DNA of 64,000 nt, taken from a virus. The stretch is from IMG/VR virus record IMGVR_UViG_3300048672_000970, positions 1 to 64,000 of that record, one strand, 5' to 3'. The first letter of the stretch is position 1. Each line of letters starts with the position of its first letter. The translations under genes were made by a program, and so were the position numbers. This document shows, one piece after another, positions 40,856 to 50,941 of the stretch. Under the pieces are notes generated by a model that worked only from the letters and a program-made list of their open reading frames with translations, ran no database searches and had not been told where the DNA came from.

Positions 40856-42592
40856 TTATTCAAGTTGAGAAGTGTAAATGGTTTGGAATTCATCCGCCCA
40901 ATCATTATTGGTTGACCACAGCTTTTTGATATTGCTATCAATGAAATAGGTGGTTGCCCAATCGTTAACGTGGCGTACCGACCGGCCGGCGCCTTGCACC
41001 AATTTTAGCAGCGTTTCAAGCTGATAGATGTGCGGGTACTGATCAAGAATTCGCTTCATGCGCGCGTCACCAAGGCTGCCATACGGCGCTTTAACGATGA
41101 TTTGATACCGTGACTGGTCATTAGGCAAATCGATGCCCTCAAAGCCGGCTGGCGTCAGCAGGATGGCAGACCCCTTGTATGCCTTGAAAGCTTTCAGCAC
41201 CTGATTCAGTTTTTTGCCCTGTTCATGTTGAAAGATTTGCGCATTGGTCTTCAATCCATTGGCAATCAAACTGTTCAGCTTGAAAGACGGCGTAAGAATA
41301 ATTCCCCGCTCTTTCTTCGCATGGTGGTGATTGACAATTTGATTGCTCAGGGAAACCAACTTTTTCCCTGTCTCCGGATTCTGTAATGATTGATAACTCA
41401 GTGGAATCGGATTGAGGAAAATAACTTTCTTGTTCTTCTTCGGAAAGACAGCCGGTGCTTTGATGAATTTCACCTTACCGGGAATCTTCATATAAGCCTT
41501 AACTAACGTTTCGTTAATCGTCGCGCTCATGATAAGCGTATAAGTCGAATTGACCATTTCACGATACATATCACCGATGAACAGCGGTTTGATAATGAGC
41601 TGATATGGCTGATTCGGGTCTTGGGCAGTTGGCTGCTTGAACTCATACGAGTGTTCATAAGTTTTTGAAACGAACTTGTCCGTTACGCCGACCAGATTGC
41701 CGAGCTTGCGCGAAAACTTGTTCAGCGTCTTGAACAGTTCTTTGTTCAGGACGAAATCCTTCATGTTGAGAATTCGCTCATTGACATCTGCGAGAAATGG
41801 CCGATAGACATCTTGAAGCATCAGGGAGAAAAACTCAACATAGTTTTCTTGCGTGATATCACCAGACGTAAAAATACCTTTCAGGTCTTTAACTAACTTA
41901 GCATACTTCGGATTCCCGAGTGCAAGCGTTGCTTCTTCAGCGAGTTTATCAAACAGTGTTTCTGACAGTTCTAACGTGACAAAATCAACGAACAGTGAAT
42001 TAGTCAGATGCCCTTCGTCAAATACTGCGAGGGTACGAGATTGCAGTGCGATTTCATCCGGCATGAAAAGTCGGTCAACGTAGTAATACGCATAATTTGT
42101 CACCAGATGGTGTGACTTTTCTTTTTTCTGACGAAGGAAATTGTATTGACAAAAGCGGCAATGCTCATTGAGCATTTCTTCATTGTTCGACCGAGTGAAA
42201 TCGGAGAAAACGCAATCTTCCGCAGTGGTTGGTTCACCCGTACTGGATAGTGCCGAGCAATTATAGTTCGATGCACCTTTCACCACCAGAAAGTTGAGGT
42301 CGCGTTCAGATTCAGCAAAATCGGTCGCATACTGATCGAGCAGGACGTTAGTTGCTGATAGCAGAAATGATGCTTGTTCGTGCTGGTCTGGGTGCAGAAT
42401 TGAATGGAGTGCTTCAGCAGTAACGACCGCTATCGTTGACTTACCTCGGCCAGTGGGTGCGGATAGGATGATGGTTTTGTTATCTTCATCCAGAAATGAG
42501 ACAAGAAGCTGATTGATAATTTCTTCTTGTCCGTCCCACGGCTCACGGCCGACCTTCTTGAACGCGGCTAAAATTTGTTCCTTGTATTTCAT
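40856..42592 (-). CDS. XPD/DinG-like superfamily 2 helicase with Fe-S cluster motif
   Basis: The 578-residue protein (start MKYKEQILAAFKK, preceded by AAAGGACTGC) has Walker A APTGRGKS (45-52), a DEAH-type box VFDEGH, LIMSATI (motif III), and motif VI KLVQGAGRSVRH. Four cysteines at about 112, 127, 145 and 148 fall between motifs Ia and II, the place of the 4Fe-4S cluster in XPD, FANCJ and DinG. These helicases unwind DNA 5' to 3'. It could act in phage replication, recombination or repair. Confidence 0.85.
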   Translation of the reverse strand: MKYKEQILAAFKKVGREPWDGQEEIINQLLVSFLDEDNKTIILSAPTGRGKSTIAVVTAEALHSILHPDQHEQASFLLSATNVLLDQYATDFAESERDLNFLVVKGASNYNCSALSSTGEPTTAEDCVFSDFTRSNNEEMLNEHCRFCQYNFLRQKKEKSHHLVTNYAYYYVDRLFMPDEIALQSRTLAVFDEGHLTNSLFVDFVTLELSETLFDKLAEEATLALGNPKYAKLVKDLKGIFTSGDITQENYVEFFSLMLQDVYRPFLADVNERILNMKDFVLNKELFKTLNKFSRKLGNLVGVTDKFVSKTYEHSYEFKQPTAQDPNQPYQLIIKPLFIGDMYREMVNSTYTLIMSATINETLVKAYMKIPGKVKFIKAPAVFPKKNKKVIFLNPIPLSYQSLQNPETGKKLVSLSNQIVNHHHAKKERGIILTPSFKLNSLIANGLKTNAQIFQHEQGKKLNQVLKAFKAYKGSAILLTPAGFEGIDLPNDQSRYQIIVKAPYGSLGDARMKRILDQYPHIYQLETLLKLVQGAGRSVRHVNDWATTYFIDSNIKKLWSTNNDWADEFQTIYTSQLE

Positions 42593-42646
42593 GCAGTCCT
42601 TTGGTGCAAAGTTGGAGATGCTGAATGATAGCATCTTTTAACGAAC

Positions 42647-42943: not shown

Positions 42944-43429
42944 TTAACGACCCCCGATAATGATTCGTGCCCGAGATTCCAGCCCGTAAAGCTGATGATG
43001 CTCTTGCTTTTGAGCATGCTTCGCCCGCGCCTTTGCCTCATCGGCAAATTCATACCGGCGAGCCGTTTGAAAAGTTTGAATGATCTTGCCAACGTCAGAC
43101 AGCACACTTGCACGCGTTGCCAGGATTTCTCCTTCCACGTCCACGTCAATCTTGCTGAAAGAGAAAATGGACGGCTGCGTGTGCTCCAGAGTTTCAACCA
43201 GCACATGATCCATGGCTTGTCGAATATTCTTCACCAGCACTTCATCCTTTTGGCCGGTGGCAAACTGTTCGCGCATCAGCTTTGCCAGCGCAGCATACGC
43301 CTTCGATGCTGCGGGCGTCAGCACGCCGGGGATCGGGAGATTCTTGCGATTCCACGCCTGTTGCTGGCGGGTCAGGAAAGGTTGTTGTGCGGCAATCTTC
43401 TGGCTCGGTTCAACGATGTGCTTTTGCAT
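42944..43429 (-). CDS. Hypothetical protein (161 aa)
   Basis: Start MQKHIVEPSQKIAAQQPF with AAAGGAAGCATC upstream. Helical throughout, with a basic C-terminal part (EAKARAKHAQKQEHHQLYG) that could bind nucleic acid. It is the gene next to the trailer end of the CRISPR array, 96 bases away. No similarity to a Cas protein is visible: no HD, RAMP glycine-rich loop or Cas6 His was found. Confidence 0.6.
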   Translation of the reverse strand: MQKHIVEPSQKIAAQQPFLTRQQQAWNRKNLPIPGVLTPAASKAYAALAKLMREQFATGQKDEVLVKNIRQAMDHVLVETLEHTQPSIFSFSKIDVDVEGEILATRASVLSDVGKIIQTFQTARRYEFADEAKARAKHAQKQEHHQLYGLESRARIIIGGR

Positions 43430-43525: not shown

Positions 43526-44164
43526 ATGTTAATCCGCACAAGTGGCGGCGAGGGACTCACGTAGCTTGAGCATCAAAGACGCGAGCCTTTTAAGCCGCAC
43601 GTATGGCGGCGAGGTCAGCAGAGTATCACCGCATTGCTGAAATCTGCTCTTTTAAGCCGCACGTATGGCGGCGAGGAACTCATCTAACCTGACGCTCATC
43701 GCAGGGCTTCTTTTAAGCCGCACGTATGGCGGCGAGGCTGCTCGGTTTGAGTGCTGATGCAAAAGCTGTTCTTTTAAGCCGCACGTATGGCGGCGAGGGG
43801 ATTTTCTCAGTCAGCGGCAGTCACATCAGTTCTTTTAAGCCGCACGTATGGCGGCGAGGTTTGCAATCCGGCCAGCGGAGTTGAGTGAGATACTTTTAAG
43901 CCGCACGTATGGCGGCGAGGCCAGTCGTTTTCAACGGCGGAAGATTCTTGATTCTTTTAAGCCGCACGTATGGCGGCGAGGATGCGGTCAACTGAAAATT
44001 CTTCTTTCTCAGTTCTTTTAAGCCGCACGTATGGCGGCGAGGGTTGTTTGACAGAATGACTGAATTAGTCGTCAACTTTTAAGCCGCACGTATGGCGGCG
44101 AGGCGCACTCGTGATAGTTCCTGCAGCGATTTCAGCCTTTTAAGCCGCACGTATGGCGGCGAGG
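43526..44164 (-). CRISPR. Orphan CRISPR array, 11 repeats and 10 spacers, type I-F-like repeat
   Basis: Ten identical 28-base repeats (on the plus strand starting CTTTTAAGCC and ending GGCGGCGAGG) end at 43614, 43676, 43737, 43798, 43859, 43920, 43981, 44042, 44103 and 44164. An eleventh, at 43526-43553, differs at six positions and is the degenerate trailer repeat. Spacers are 33 bases, one is 34 (43615-43648), all different. The minus strand is the likely sense: there the repeat has a GCCGC/GCGGC stem and ends CTTAAAAG, close to the stem and CTTAGAAA-type 8-base handle of type I-F repeats, with 18 of 28 positions equal to the common I-F repeat by eye. Transcription would run from the leader at 44165 leftwards. 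No cas gene is near. Confidence 0.95.
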
Positions 44165-44339
44165 TAGAGCTTTTCAGAAAAACATTAATTAAATCAATAA
44201 CTTACATCATTAACTTAAAGTAACCCTTTCTCAAAAGTTACCGTTTCTCACTGTCAAAAAGATGATATAAATCAATGACTTACCTCACTTTCTTCAAGTG
44301 ACTGAAAAATAAAGGGGGTCATTTGGCTGGACTATCTCC
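44165..44339 (-). promoter_or_regulatory. CRISPR leader with two IHF-consensus sites
   Basis: This 175-base A/T-rich stretch without a gene adjoins the conserved end of the array. Two matches to the IHF consensus (WATCAA-N4-TTR) lie at 44192-44204 and 44270-44282, 78 bases apart, within near-identical 20-base direct repeats (AATCAATAACTTA and AATCAATGACTTA). The first is 27 bases from the first repeat. Minus-strand TTGACA occurs at 44251-44256 as a possible -35 element, but a good -10 is not seen. In types I-E and I-F, IHF bends the leader for spacer integration. Confidence 0.6.
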
Positions 44340-44753
44340 TTATCGGATGACTTCCAGCGAGAACGGAAGCGAGCGGAACCGCAACACTTTGCCCGCATCG
44401 GCCTCCGTCACGCCCACCGGGAAACGCTTCGACCGGCGACCCTTGATGGTCGGGTCATGCACCCACAGGCCGCCCTTTTGGCGCAGGGTCGCTTCAAATT
44501 CATAACCCTGCTTGGCAGCATCGCGTTCATTCCGGCGACGGATTTCCTCATTTCGAGCCTGATTTGCCCGTTCTTCCGCAGCAGCCCTTGCGGTACGGTG
44601 CTCTGCAAGAGCCTTTTCAGAACGGGCGTTAGACGCCGCCCATTCAGCGTACAGAGCTTGCGCTTCAGCACTTTGCGGGTGGAGCAGCTTAACACCATTC
44701 GGCAGAGTGGTGCATCCGAACATTTCATGATCAGCTTGGCGTGCGTCAGACAT
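44340..44753 (-). CDS. Hypothetical protein beside CRISPR leader (137 aa)
   Basis: Starts MSDARQADHEMFGCTTLP. A long Ala/Glu/Arg-rich helix (about 45-85, EKALAEHRTARAAAEERANQ) predicts a coiled coil; the C-terminal 40 residues are basic and beta-like (GRRSKRFPVGVTEADAGKVL). The codon choice is more G/C-rich than in neighbours. It ends at the distal limit of the CRISPR leader; no Cas motif is seen. Function unknown. Confidence 0.6.
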   Translation of the reverse strand: MSDARQADHEMFGCTTLPNGVKLLHPQSAEAQALYAEWAASNARSEKALAEHRTARAAAEERANQARNEEIRRRNERDAAKQGYEFEATLRQKGGLWVHDPTIKGRRSKRFPVGVTEADAGKVLRFRSLPFSLEVIR

Positions 44754-48152: not shown

Positions 48153-49478
48153 TTACGGTGCCTTACGTTGCTTTTTCGCCTTACCGGGTGCGTTTGCTTC
48201 AATGTATGCAATTTCTTCCGGCGTCAGCTTGAGAGCATTGTAAATCAGGTTTGGCGAAAAGTCAACGGCTAAGTCAATCTTTGGGATGTGGGCCAGCAGA
48301 GTTCGGTTGGTGAATCCGGCCGTTTTCGTTTGGTCAAGAAGCCATGCCATGATGTCAGATGTGAGGTATTCCATAATATGCGTACCTTCTAATGGCGTAT
48401 CCACCAAAATGGCGGCGGCGTGCTCGGTATATCCCCACTCGCCATCCATATCAAAAACCATTTTGTCGGACACCGTTCCTCTGGCGGCGTAAAGGGGGAA
48501 CACAATTTTCCGTTTGAACTGATTAGGATGGGGCTTAGAGCCATATCGAATGCTCGCGCCGTGCACATTCGGATAATGAAATACATTATCATCAACTTTC
48601 GACATATGCGGCCTGCGGGCATCATTATTCGAGTCAAACAACACTTCCATGTTTTCACGAGTTCTATCATTGAATACTTTATTCATAATAGAAAGACTGA
48701 TAGTGTCAACCGTTTCAGGCATAACTGTAATATTATTTAAATTGATAAAAACCGTATCTTTACCATTCACCGCAGTGGTTAAATGTTCCCGCGAAGGAAG
48801 TTCTTTTTTAACAATGAACCAAGAAACAGTCGTACCAACGGTAGGGAAATATTCACGGGCATTTAAGCAAATGTACTCGGCGCTGTATTTGTTTATCACC
48901 TCTTTAAACACTTTTGTTTTGGAATCGGCCCAAGCATTTGGCGTAATCATTGCCAGATGGCCGGACGGCTTGACAAGTTTCATACCTGCCAGGACAAATT
49001 CCGTCCACGCCTTCTTACTGCTGGCTGCGTCTTTATCTTGAAACGGCGGGTTGCCGCACACCACATCAAATCTCATATATCTCCAATCAATGTTGCCAGT
49101 GGAAATGCAAGCATACTTGATGCCATGCATTTCACACAGTTGACGGATTTTATCATGATAGTCGTTGGTGGCGAGCGTAACGGATGCGTTATTTTGTAGT
49201 TTCAGCCACAGCGCCCATTCAAACGTCTCAAAGACCAACACGGATTGATTTCCACGGGGCAGATACGTCTGAATGTTTTCAATCAACTGATACGCAGTAA
49301 ACGGTTGGGTGAAGGCATCTTCACGGTCGGATGGTGCCGCATAAATGTCAGAAATTAAAAAATCGGCAATGGCACTCAGAATTTCAGAATTGGCAGTGTG
49401 TTCACAGTCAGTGAAATTTTCCGTGTTCAGCATGTCGTTCCAATCAAAGTTATTTGGTATGGGTGAATTATGGTACAC
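48153..49478 (-). CDS. N6-adenine DNA methyltransferase-like protein (NPPF, weak motif I)
   Basis: A 441-residue gamma-class type protein. Motif X FTQPFTAYQLIENIQ (56-70) and motif IV DVVCGNPPFQDKD (138-150) are clear, with LVKPSGHLAMITPNAWADS after it (motifs V-VI). Motif I, which should read like D-P-x-x-G-x-G, is VLVFETFEWAL (81-91) and lacks the glycines, so SAM binding is doubtful. The C-terminal 200 residues resemble target-recognition regions (KIVFPLYAARG; TSDIMAWLLDQTKTAGFTNR). It is coupled in order helicase, methyltransferase, nuclease. Confidence 0.75.
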   Translation of the reverse strand: MYHNSPIPNNFDWNDMLNTENFTDCEHTANSEILSAIADFLISDIYAAPSDREDAFTQPFTAYQLIENIQTYLPRGNQSVLVFETFEWALWLKLQNNASVTLATNDYHDKIRQLCEMHGIKYACISTGNIDWRYMRFDVVCGNPPFQDKDAASSKKAWTEFVLAGMKLVKPSGHLAMITPNAWADSKTKVFKEVINKYSAEYICLNAREYFPTVGTTVSWFIVKKELPSREHLTTAVNGKDTVFINLNNITVMPETVDTISLSIMNKVFNDRTRENMEVLFDSNNDARRPHMSKVDDNVFHYPNVHGASIRYGSKPHPNQFKRKIVFPLYAARGTVSDKMVFDMDGEWGYTEHAAAILVDTPLEGTHIMEYLTSDIMAWLLDQTKTAGFTNRTLLAHIPKIDLAVDFSPNLIYNALKLTPEEIAYIEANAPGKAKKQRKAP

Positions 49479-49501: not shown

Positions 49502-50941
49502 TTACACAATCTTTGCGCGCAACATTTGAAGATATCGGGCATGTGACTTCTTAACGGCGGTCAGTTCCTTTTCTTCACGTTCTTGTTCTTCCACTTCAAT
49601 TTGAAGACCAGGGTCAATGGCCTTACGAACCGTCATCAAGTCTTGATATCCAGTAGCGTCAACAAGAGCTTGCAGCACTTGTTTTGCATCCGGGCCGGTC
49701 AGTTCATGGTGGTCAATGACCGGGATGATCACCAAACATTCTCGCTTCTGCCTAATGTCAAAATTGGCGGCGCGACTGAACTTGCCAGGGTCGGGGAGAT
49801 AGTCGGGGCGAGTCAAATCACCAATGTAAGGGCGGGCGCATCGACCAACTGATTGAATCAGCTTTTCACGAGTCTTTTCACTCATGAACAGAACTGCAGA
49901 CAAAGTGGAAATGTCAATCCCTTCTGCCAAAGTGTCATAATGCGCAACAATACAGTTTCGCTGATTTTCCTGAATGTCCTTCAGCAGAGCTTCCCGCGAC
50001 TGGAAAAAGTTACCGTCTTTCATCTGATTCTTGGAAGATACGGTATTAATGTTAAAACATCCGGCCACTTCCGGCAGTTCAGCAACAATACGGTCATAGA
50101 TTTTCCGCACGTTAGTTTGAATGGTGGTAATGTCAACTTGCACGTCACGAGTACAAACCAGCATCTGTGTATGCGGCATACCATTGAGCCGATTTCGCTT
50201 ATACGATTCAACAAACCCGGCGACCAGAATATCAACAATAGTTGCCGAAAGTTCGACATTCTTTCGATTGGCATGCAGTTCAATAATGGCCGGAGGGACA
50301 ATGTAGCCATCCTTGTAAAGTTCATACGGAAGCACTTCAGCAAGCACGCGTCCATACATCGATTCATTCATCGCCGAATGCATGTCAACTTTTTCACCAT
50401 TCTCATATACCACCGGGGTTGCGGTATAAAGCAAACACTTCGTTTTGAAAGACAAATTCATGGTGTAGTCCCTGAATTGCTTTTGCGCCAGATAATGTCC
50501 CTCATCAGCAATGACCAAATCAAATTCAAAATCATTGATGTGGGTGAAACTGTCATACGACGCATACGTGATATGCACATTACCCACATCCATAGCGGAA
50601 TTGATACATTCCGTCAAAATGGAAGCATTGGTAGTATTGATTTCCATCCGCATGTAACCTTCAGGGTGAGCGCCAGAATTGAAAGAATTCTTCACGACTT
50701 CAATTCCGCAAATCCATTCAGCACCGTTACGCACTTGTTGCTGACTGAGCGCAATGCGCGGCGTGACAACACAGAAATTACGCATACCAAGTTCAACTGC
50801 ATGCTCGATTGCCTTGTTGAACAGGACAGTCTTCCCCGCGCCAGTAGGCGCATAAATTTGCCCAAGCATTTCATCATTTTCGATAAACGCCTTGGTGGCG
50901 TTGTGAATCTTTTCTTGGTACGGGCGCAGGGTCTTGGACAT
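49502..50941 (-). CDS. SF2 (type III/ISP restriction-like) DNA helicase
   Basis: A 479-residue helicase with Walker A APTGAGKT (31-38), VVTPRIALSQQQ (Ia), IADEGH (II, 145-149 region), YTATP (III), HYDTLAEGIDI (V) and QSVGRCARP (VI). This set is like the motor domain of type I, III and ISP restriction enzymes, and also of T4 UvsW. The downstream methyltransferase and Mrr-like nuclease favour the first. The tail (about 440-479) is a charged coiled coil. It follows terminator 50995-51017. Confidence 0.85.
   Translation of the reverse strand: MSKTLRPYQEKIHNATKAFIENDEMLGQIYAPTGAGKTVLFNKAIEHAVELGMRNFCVVTPRIALSQQQVRNGAEWICGIEVVKNSFNSGAHPEGYMRMEINTTNASILTECINSAMDVGNVHITYASYDSFTHINDFEFDLVIADEGHYLAQKQFRDYTMNLSFKTKCLLYTATPVVYENGEKVDMHSAMNESMYGRVLAEVLPYELYKDGYIVPPAIIELHANRKNVELSATIVDILVAGFVESYKRNRLNGMPHTQMLVCTRDVQVDITTIQTNVRKIYDRIVAELPEVAGCFNINTVSSKNQMKDGNFFQSREALLKDIQENQRNCIVAHYDTLAEGIDISTLSAVLFMSEKTREKLIQSVGRCARPYIGDLTRPDYLPDPGKFSRAANFDIRQKRECLVIIPVIDHHELTGPDAKQVLQALVDATGYQDLMTVRKAIDPGLQIEVEEQEREEKELTAVKKSHARYLQMLRAKIV

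What the first reader, a model, noticed from the sequence alone, without database searches (positions are those of the whole stretch)
43526..44164. Phage-borne CRISPR array without cas genes
Eleven 28-base repeats and ten distinct 33-34-base spacers lie in a T4-like phage genome. Ten repeats are identical, and the one at the far end from the leader is degenerate, as in a normal, ordered array. The minus-strand repeat has a GCCGC/GCGGC stem and an 8-base CTTAAAAG end, resembling type I-F. Period is 61, longer than the usual 60 of I-F. No Cas protein is encoded in the window. The array may borrow host Cas proteins to attack competing phages or plasmids, or silence host targets, or act as anti-CRISPR decoy RNAs.
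Basis: partly seen in the sequence, partly recalled or inferred. Interest (0 to 1): 0.9.

Follow-up and report, generated by a model that had tools for sequence, protein, structure and literature searches.

The report
Cas-less I-F-like CRISPR array in phage
A large bacterial virus carries an intact-looking CRISPR memory bank (leader, ten spacers, eleven repeats) but none of the Cas proteins that read it, so it probably relies on its host's CRISPR machinery to attack rival elements; several viruses with such arrays are already known.

Summary
The array is real: ten identical 28-nt repeats plus one degenerate terminal repeat, ten unique spacers (nine of 33 nt, one of 34), period 61, and an AT-rich leader at 44165-44330. 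The window is the first third of a 200,363-bp virus record. No cas gene was found in that record, by defence-profile scans of 180 proteins and by six-frame searches for Cas1, Cas6f and Cas7f. A type IV-DinG match next to the array is a core phage helicase, conserved in about 14 related large phages that have no array there. The repeat is type I-F-like: 23 of 28 positions match the repeat of a proteobacterial MAG (FK4.bin111), and the hairpin layout is that of Methylomonas and Marinomonas arrays. No genome searched has the exact repeat, so the host is unknown. No spacer matched the phage itself, phage records, plasmids or 27 related viral records. The best explanation is a host-Cas-dependent array for competition with other elements. 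That is an inference; transcription, processing and targets are unshown. Cas-less phage arrays are already published (Nostoc phage N-1, huge phages, mini-arrays), so this is a new member of a known kind.

The parts
44165..44330 (-). AT-rich leader upstream of the first (leader-proximal) repeat, non-coding
   Evidence: no ORF of 60 aa or more covers it; contains a 47-nt imperfect direct repeat (family D2)
44192..44204 (+). IHF-consensus site, proximal (AATCAATAACTTA; 28-40 nt before the first repeat)
   Evidence: match to WATCAANNNNTTR; 12 such matches in 64 kb, two of them in this 166-nt leader
44270..44282 (+). IHF-consensus site, distal (AATCAATGACTTA; 106-118 nt before the first repeat)
44206..44234 (-). 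weak sigma-70-like promoter match pointing into the array
   Evidence: 9 of 12 consensus positions; 4 found against 2.1 expected in shuffles, so weak
43587..44164 (-). ten identical 28-nt repeats CCTCGCCGCCATACGTGCGGCTTAAAAG with nine spacers between them (eight of 33 nt, one of 34 nt)
   Evidence: the crRNA-like strand folds into a GCCGC/GCGGC hairpin, -9.3 kcal/mol
43554..43586 (-). tenth (oldest) spacer, 33 nt
43526..43553 (-). degenerate terminal repeat, 22/28 identical
44340..44753 (-). neighbouring ORF upstream of the leader, unknown protein, 137 aa; not Cas
   Evidence: no significant family
42944..43429 (-). neighbouring ORF downstream of the array, unknown protein, 161 aa; not Cas
   Evidence: no Pfam match
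40856..42634 (-). DinG/XPD-type phage helicase; matches the type IV-A DinG profile but is a core phage gene and not part of the array
   Evidence: typeIV_DinG 1e-47; phrog_2488 1.7e-82

Best explanation
This is a type I-F-like CRISPR array carried by a large phage that encodes no detectable Cas proteins. It was most likely captured from a proteobacterial host or host plasmid. It is probably transcribed from its leader during infection, cut by the host's Cas6f at the hairpin, and loaded into the host's I-F complex. The ten guides would then attack other phages or plasmids competing for the same cell. The intact leader with two IHF-like sites suggests that host Cas1-Cas2/3 plus IHF could add spacers while the phage is in the cell. 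Shown here: array anatomy, leader, absence of detectable cas genes, I-F-like repeat, absence of self-targets. Inferred: transcription, processing, use of host Cas, targets, and acquisition in trans.
For: Ten perfect repeats with a degenerate terminal copy and unique spacers. AT-rich leader with two IHF-consensus sites 78 bp apart, only 12 such sites in 64 kb; I-E and I-F adaptation rely on IHF (PMC9602844, PMC12259127). The repeat matches the FK4.bin111 array repeat at 23/28 and has the same fold as I-F repeats. Spacer first-base bias (A 60%, C 0%) runs in the same direction as in 185 spacers from I-F-type bacterial arrays (A 38%, C 7%). No cas gene in the record. No spacer matches the phage's own genome. 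Precedents: Nostoc phage N-1, whose cas-less array is transcribed (PMC4916379); viral mini-arrays shown experimentally to act through the host system (PMC11656645); huge phages lacking cas genes whose repeats resemble those of their hosts (PMC7162821).
Against: No genome searched carries the exact repeat: genome contigs exact and degenerate scans, 237 Methylomonas-family genomes, and 399 genomes of the order of the best match. Compatibility with any host Cas6f is therefore untested. The 8-nt handle CTTAAAAG differs from CTTAGAAA at two positions and the repeat starts CC instead of GT. Spacers are 33 nt, while 177 of 187 spacers in the compared bacterial arrays are 32 nt. No protospacer was found. 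The leader does not resemble the Methylomonas I-F leaders.
Confidence: 0.6

Rival explanations
1. Relic: a host array picked up by recombination and carried passively, with no present function.
For: No matching targets, no known host repeat, and no array near the helicase in related phages, so it is a recent or lineage-specific gain.
Against: Ten repeats are letter-identical and the leader keeps both IHF-like sites. A neutral passenger in a phage should decay or be deleted, although a very recent capture would look the same.
Confidence: 0.2
2. Decoy: the repeats make crRNA-like RNAs that tie up host Cas6f and Cas7f, like the RNA anti-CRISPR RacrIF1, protecting the phage from host I-F immunity.
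For: I-F repeat mimicry by phage RNAs is experimentally known (PMC10651486). The altered handle and 5' end could make a poor but sequestering mimic.
Against: Racrs are solitary repeats. Ten unique spacers and a leader with IHF-like sites are not needed for a decoy and point to acquisition.
Confidence: 0.1
3. The phage encodes its own divergent effector, for example a minimal type IV-like system using the adjacent DinG helicase.
For: The helicase 0.9 kb from the array matches typeIV_DinG at 1e-47. Many unknown proteins remain in the record.
Against: The helicase is phrog_2488, common in Ackermannviridae and other large phages. It keeps its place beside an AAA ATPase and a kinase in relatives that have no array nearby. 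No Cas5, Cas6, Cas7 or Cas8 profile match appears.
Confidence: 0.07
4. The guides silence host genes (gene regulation or host takeover) rather than rival elements.
For: Some huge-phage spacers match host transcription and translation genes (PMC7162821).
Against: No spacer target of any kind was found, and host genomes could not be searched because the host is unknown.
Confidence: 0.03

Closest known systems
Cas-less CRISPR array of Nostoc cyanophage N-1 (PMC4916379)
   Same: Phage-borne array, AT-rich leader, no cas genes, host-like repeat, spacers without database matches; transcribed in infection
   Different: Five 37-nt repeats of the DR5 (I-D) class in a 65-kb cyanophage; here eleven 28-nt I-F-like repeats in a 200-kb phage record and a leader with IHF-like sites; expression untested here
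Arrays of huge phages lacking adaptation and interference genes (PMC7162821)
   Same: Large metagenomic phage, compact array, no recognisable cas genes, possible use of host Cas
   Different: There some repeats were matched to hosts and some spacers to targets; here neither could be
Virus-borne mini-arrays used in inter-virus conflict (PMC6858448, PMC11656645)
   Same: Array in a virus without cas genes, thought to use host Cas against relatives
   Different: Mini-arrays have one or two spacers, repeats identical to the host's and targets in related viruses; here ten spacers, no identical host repeat found, no target found
Type I-F CRISPR-Cas of Vibrio phage ICP1 (described in PMC11656645, PMC6452262)
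   Same: I-F-class array on a lytic phage
   Different: ICP1 carries the full I-F cas set and targets the PLE satellite; here no cas genes and no known target
RNA anti-CRISPR RacrIF1 and other solitary repeat units (PMC10651486)
   Same: Phage-encoded I-F repeat mimic
   Different: Solitary repeat without spacers, against a full array with leader

Membership tests
CRISPR array | Near-identical repeats separated by unique spacers of constant length | tested here: met
   ten identical 28-mers, spacers of 33 nt (one 34)
CRISPR array | AT-rich leader at one end and a degenerate repeat at the other | tested here: met
Type I-F CRISPR repeat class | 28-nt repeat with a GC hairpin of about 5 bp and an 8-nt 3' handle like CTTAGAAA | tested here: met
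   23/28 identity to an array repeat of the same class, same fold; handle differs at two of eight positions
Type I-F CRISPR repeat class | Spacers of 32 nt (period 60) | tested here: not met
   modal spacer 33 and period 61 here; 177 of 187 comparison spacers are 32 nt
[quoted passage not shown]
   no match in the 200,363-bp record (completeness not known)
Type I-F leader | IHF sites upstream of the first repeat | tested here: met
   two consensus sites at -40..-28 and -118..-106; binding not tested. The Methylomonas I-F leaders examined show no match to the same consensus, so this feature is not strict
Host-dependent viral CRISPR (mini-)array | Repeat identical or nearly identical to that of the host's own system | tested here: inconclusive
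   nearest repeat 23/28; host unknown
Host-dependent viral CRISPR (mini-)array | Spacers match related viruses or other mobile elements | tested here: inconclusive
   nothing above chance in phages, plasmids and 27 related records; only three spacers scanned (by their first 22-24 nt) against viral contigs
Type IV-A CRISPR-Cas | csf1, csf2, csf3 and csf5 genes with dinG next to the array | tested here: not met
   only a DinG-family helicase; searches show it is a conserved phage gene
RNA anti-CRISPR (solitary repeat unit) | One isolated repeat with no further repeats nearby | tested here: not met
   eleven repeats in one array and no solitary copy elsewhere

The most novel reading that the evidence does not exclude
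The phage maintains a growing, leader-equipped array that takes up new spacers through the host's Cas1-Cas2/3 and IHF during infection. Its repeat (CC start, CTTAAAAG handle, 33-nt spacers) would be tuned to be read, or preferentially read, over the host's own arrays: a parasitic, self-updating guide library with no Cas genes of its own.
Probability: 0.12. Interest if true: 0.8.

Novelty: new member of a known kind. Interest (0 to 1): 0.42.

Why it matters
If functional, it would add a full-length array with an apparently intact acquisition leader to the few cas-less phage arrays described. It would make it testable whether a phage can gain spacers in trans with host adaptation proteins. The unmatched repeat also marks an unsampled host system.

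Tried and rejected
Type IV-A with the adjacent DinG helicase: rejected, because the gene is a core phage helicase conserved beside the same neighbours in related phages without an array. Cas3-like profile matches in the rest of the record: compatible with helicases such as UvsW. An array candidate in related phage L091: rejected as an 18-bp minisatellite in a tail-fibre-type gene. The plasmid match in Pseudomonas lundensis pPL-38ph: a 32-bp piece at E=0.2 inside a baseplate gene, chance. Methylomonas as host: its I-F repeats are similar, but no genome in 237 of the family has the phage repeat, their spacers do not match the phage in the part of the listing I could see, and the leader differs. 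FK4.bin111 as host: best repeat match, but its contig starts 160 nt before the array and no Cas6f or Cas7f was found in the incomplete MAG; the weak Cas7f match lies in an ilvE-like gene. Spacer self-targeting: none above shuffled background. Exact repeat in viral contigs: none.

Full report
What is there. The window is bases 1-64000 of a 200,363-bp virus record. On the minus strand at 43526-44164 there is a CRISPR array: ten letter-identical 28-nt repeats, CCTCGCCGCCATACGTGCGGCTTAAAAG, with starts 61 apart (once 62), and an eleventh, degenerate copy (22/28) at the end away from the leader. The ten spacers are all different, 33 nt long except one of 34. No reading frame stays open through the region and the repeat is found nowhere else in the record.

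The leader. Upstream of the first repeat, 44165-44330 is AT-rich, without an ORF, and contains a 47-nt imperfect direct repeat 78 bp apart. Each copy holds a perfect match to the IHF consensus WATCAANNNNTTR, at -40..-28 and -118..-106 from the array. Only 12 such matches exist on both strands of the 64 kb, so two in 166 nt is unlikely by chance (about 3e-4 by my Poisson estimate). IHF is needed for type I-E and I-F spacer integration (PMC9602844, PMC12259127). IHF binding is inferred from sequence only, and the Methylomonas I-F leaders examined show no match to the same strict consensus.

No Cas genes. I called ORFs over the whole record and scanned 180 proteins, nearly all of 120 aa or longer, against PADLOC-DB. 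The best Cas-like matches were helicases: Cas3-type matches, and typeIV_DinG at 1e-47 for the gene at 40856-42634. Six-frame searches of the record for Cas6f, Cas1 and Cas7f gave nothing up to E=10, with controls responding. Limits: PADLOC listings showed the best 25 families per batch, so only matches worse than about 3e-4 (8e-3 in one batch) could be hidden; two long window ORFs (1231 and 2494 aa), a 2744-codon open frame at 154.7-162.9 kb and ORFs under about 120 aa were not scanned with PADLOC; and the record's completeness is not stated.

The DinG trap. A type IV-A system pairs an array with dinG, so the helicase 0.9 kb from the array deserved a test. It belongs to phrog_2488 at 1.7e-82 and occurs in hundreds of cultured phages, many of them Ackermannviridae-type. 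A profile search found 14 related viral loci at 37-44% identity. In several of these the same AAA ATPase or kinase follows it, and in none was a CRISPR array found within the fetched flank. The helicase is core phage equipment and the array is a lineage-specific addition.

Which CRISPR class. A degenerate scan of about 85,000 species genomes found arrays of the same repeat architecture mostly in gammaproteobacteria: Methylomonas (GTTCGCCGCCGCACAGGCGGCTTAGAAA and GTCCGCC... variants), Marinomonas, and one MAG, FK4.bin111, whose 19-repeat array has GTTCGCCGCCATACGCGCGGCTTAGAAA. The phage repeat matches the last at 23 of 28 positions, and only 2 of 200,000 letter shuffles reached even 19. The hairpin is the same. 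Two Methylomonas genomes with such arrays carry Cas6f. The phage repeat is thus I-F-like. It departs in three ways: it starts CC rather than GT, its 8-nt handle is CTTAAAAG rather than CTTAGAAA, and its spacers are 33 nt, whereas 177 of 187 comparison spacers are 32 nt. The first spacer base is A in six of ten and never C, the same direction as in 185 comparison spacers. Five of ten spacers begin AA (nominal p about 1e-3, uncorrected).

Host and targets. The exact repeat is absent from genome contigs and viral contigs, from 237 Methylomonas-family genomes and from 399 genomes of the order of FK4.bin111, where only that MAG itself matched, at 3 mismatches over 26 bases. The host is therefore unknown. 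No spacer matches the phage itself above shuffled background, phage or plasmid records, or 27 related viral records beyond chance-level pieces. The first 22-24 nt of spacers 1, 2 and 8 have no exact match in viral contigs. Lack of a target is common for environmental spacers and is not evidence of inactivity.

How it most likely works. With no effector of its own, the simplest reading is that the array is transcribed from its leader, cut by a host Cas6f and used by the host's I-F complex against competing elements, and that host Cas1-Cas2/3 with IHF could extend it. Anatomy, leader, lack of detectable cas genes and repeat class are shown; everything from transcription onward is inferred. A recent passive capture is the main rival. 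A decoy role is less likely because ten spacers and an acquisition-type leader are not needed for it.

What is known. Nostoc phage N-1 has a transcribed cas-less array with an AT-rich leader and unmatched spacers (PMC4916379). Huge phages often lack cas genes and may use host Cas (PMC7162821). Viral mini-arrays act through host systems in competition (PMC11656645). This array is a well-preserved new member of that kind, with the repeat differences and leader as its distinguishing points. [quoted passage not shown]

Noticed in passing
G000:C1:110334-116576 (L005:8334-14576, +): A bacterial stress-type operon in the phage: a YeaG/PrkA-type serine kinase (about 50% identical to 'YeaG' of Enterobacter phage LAU1 and about 45% to proteins of >630-kb uncultured phages), an FAD-dependent oxidoreductase, a DUF444 (YeaH-type) protein and SpoVR.
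   Followed up: partly
window:46039-46578, 48153-49478 and 49502-50941, minus strand: A cluster of partial or whole DNA methyltransferase genes (one Eco57I-type) beside a ResIII/DEAD helicase upstream of the array; could be a phage modification or defence-related cassette.
   Followed up: no
G000:C1:93046-94455 (L004:10046-11455, +): Nicotinamide phosphoribosyltransferase (phrog_448, 8.6e-116), an NAD-salvage gene.
   Followed up: no
window:44771-44846, minus strand: Single tRNA-Lys (TTT) gene in the gap just upstream of the ORF next to the leader, a possible recombination point for cargo such as the array.
   Followed up: no
G000:C1:about 154689-162900 (L007/L008, +): Open frame of 2744 codons, unassigned; not scanned.
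   Followed up: no
window:43554-44136, spacers: Five of ten spacers start with AA and none with C; nominal p about 1e-3, uncorrected, possible trace of acquisition preference.
   Followed up: partly
G000:C1:190613-193489 (L009:12613-15489, +): A 958-aa protein with an AAA ATPase domain and weak similarity to a porphyrin-biosynthesis-named phrog; resembles chelatase/MoxR-type fusions.
   Followed up: no
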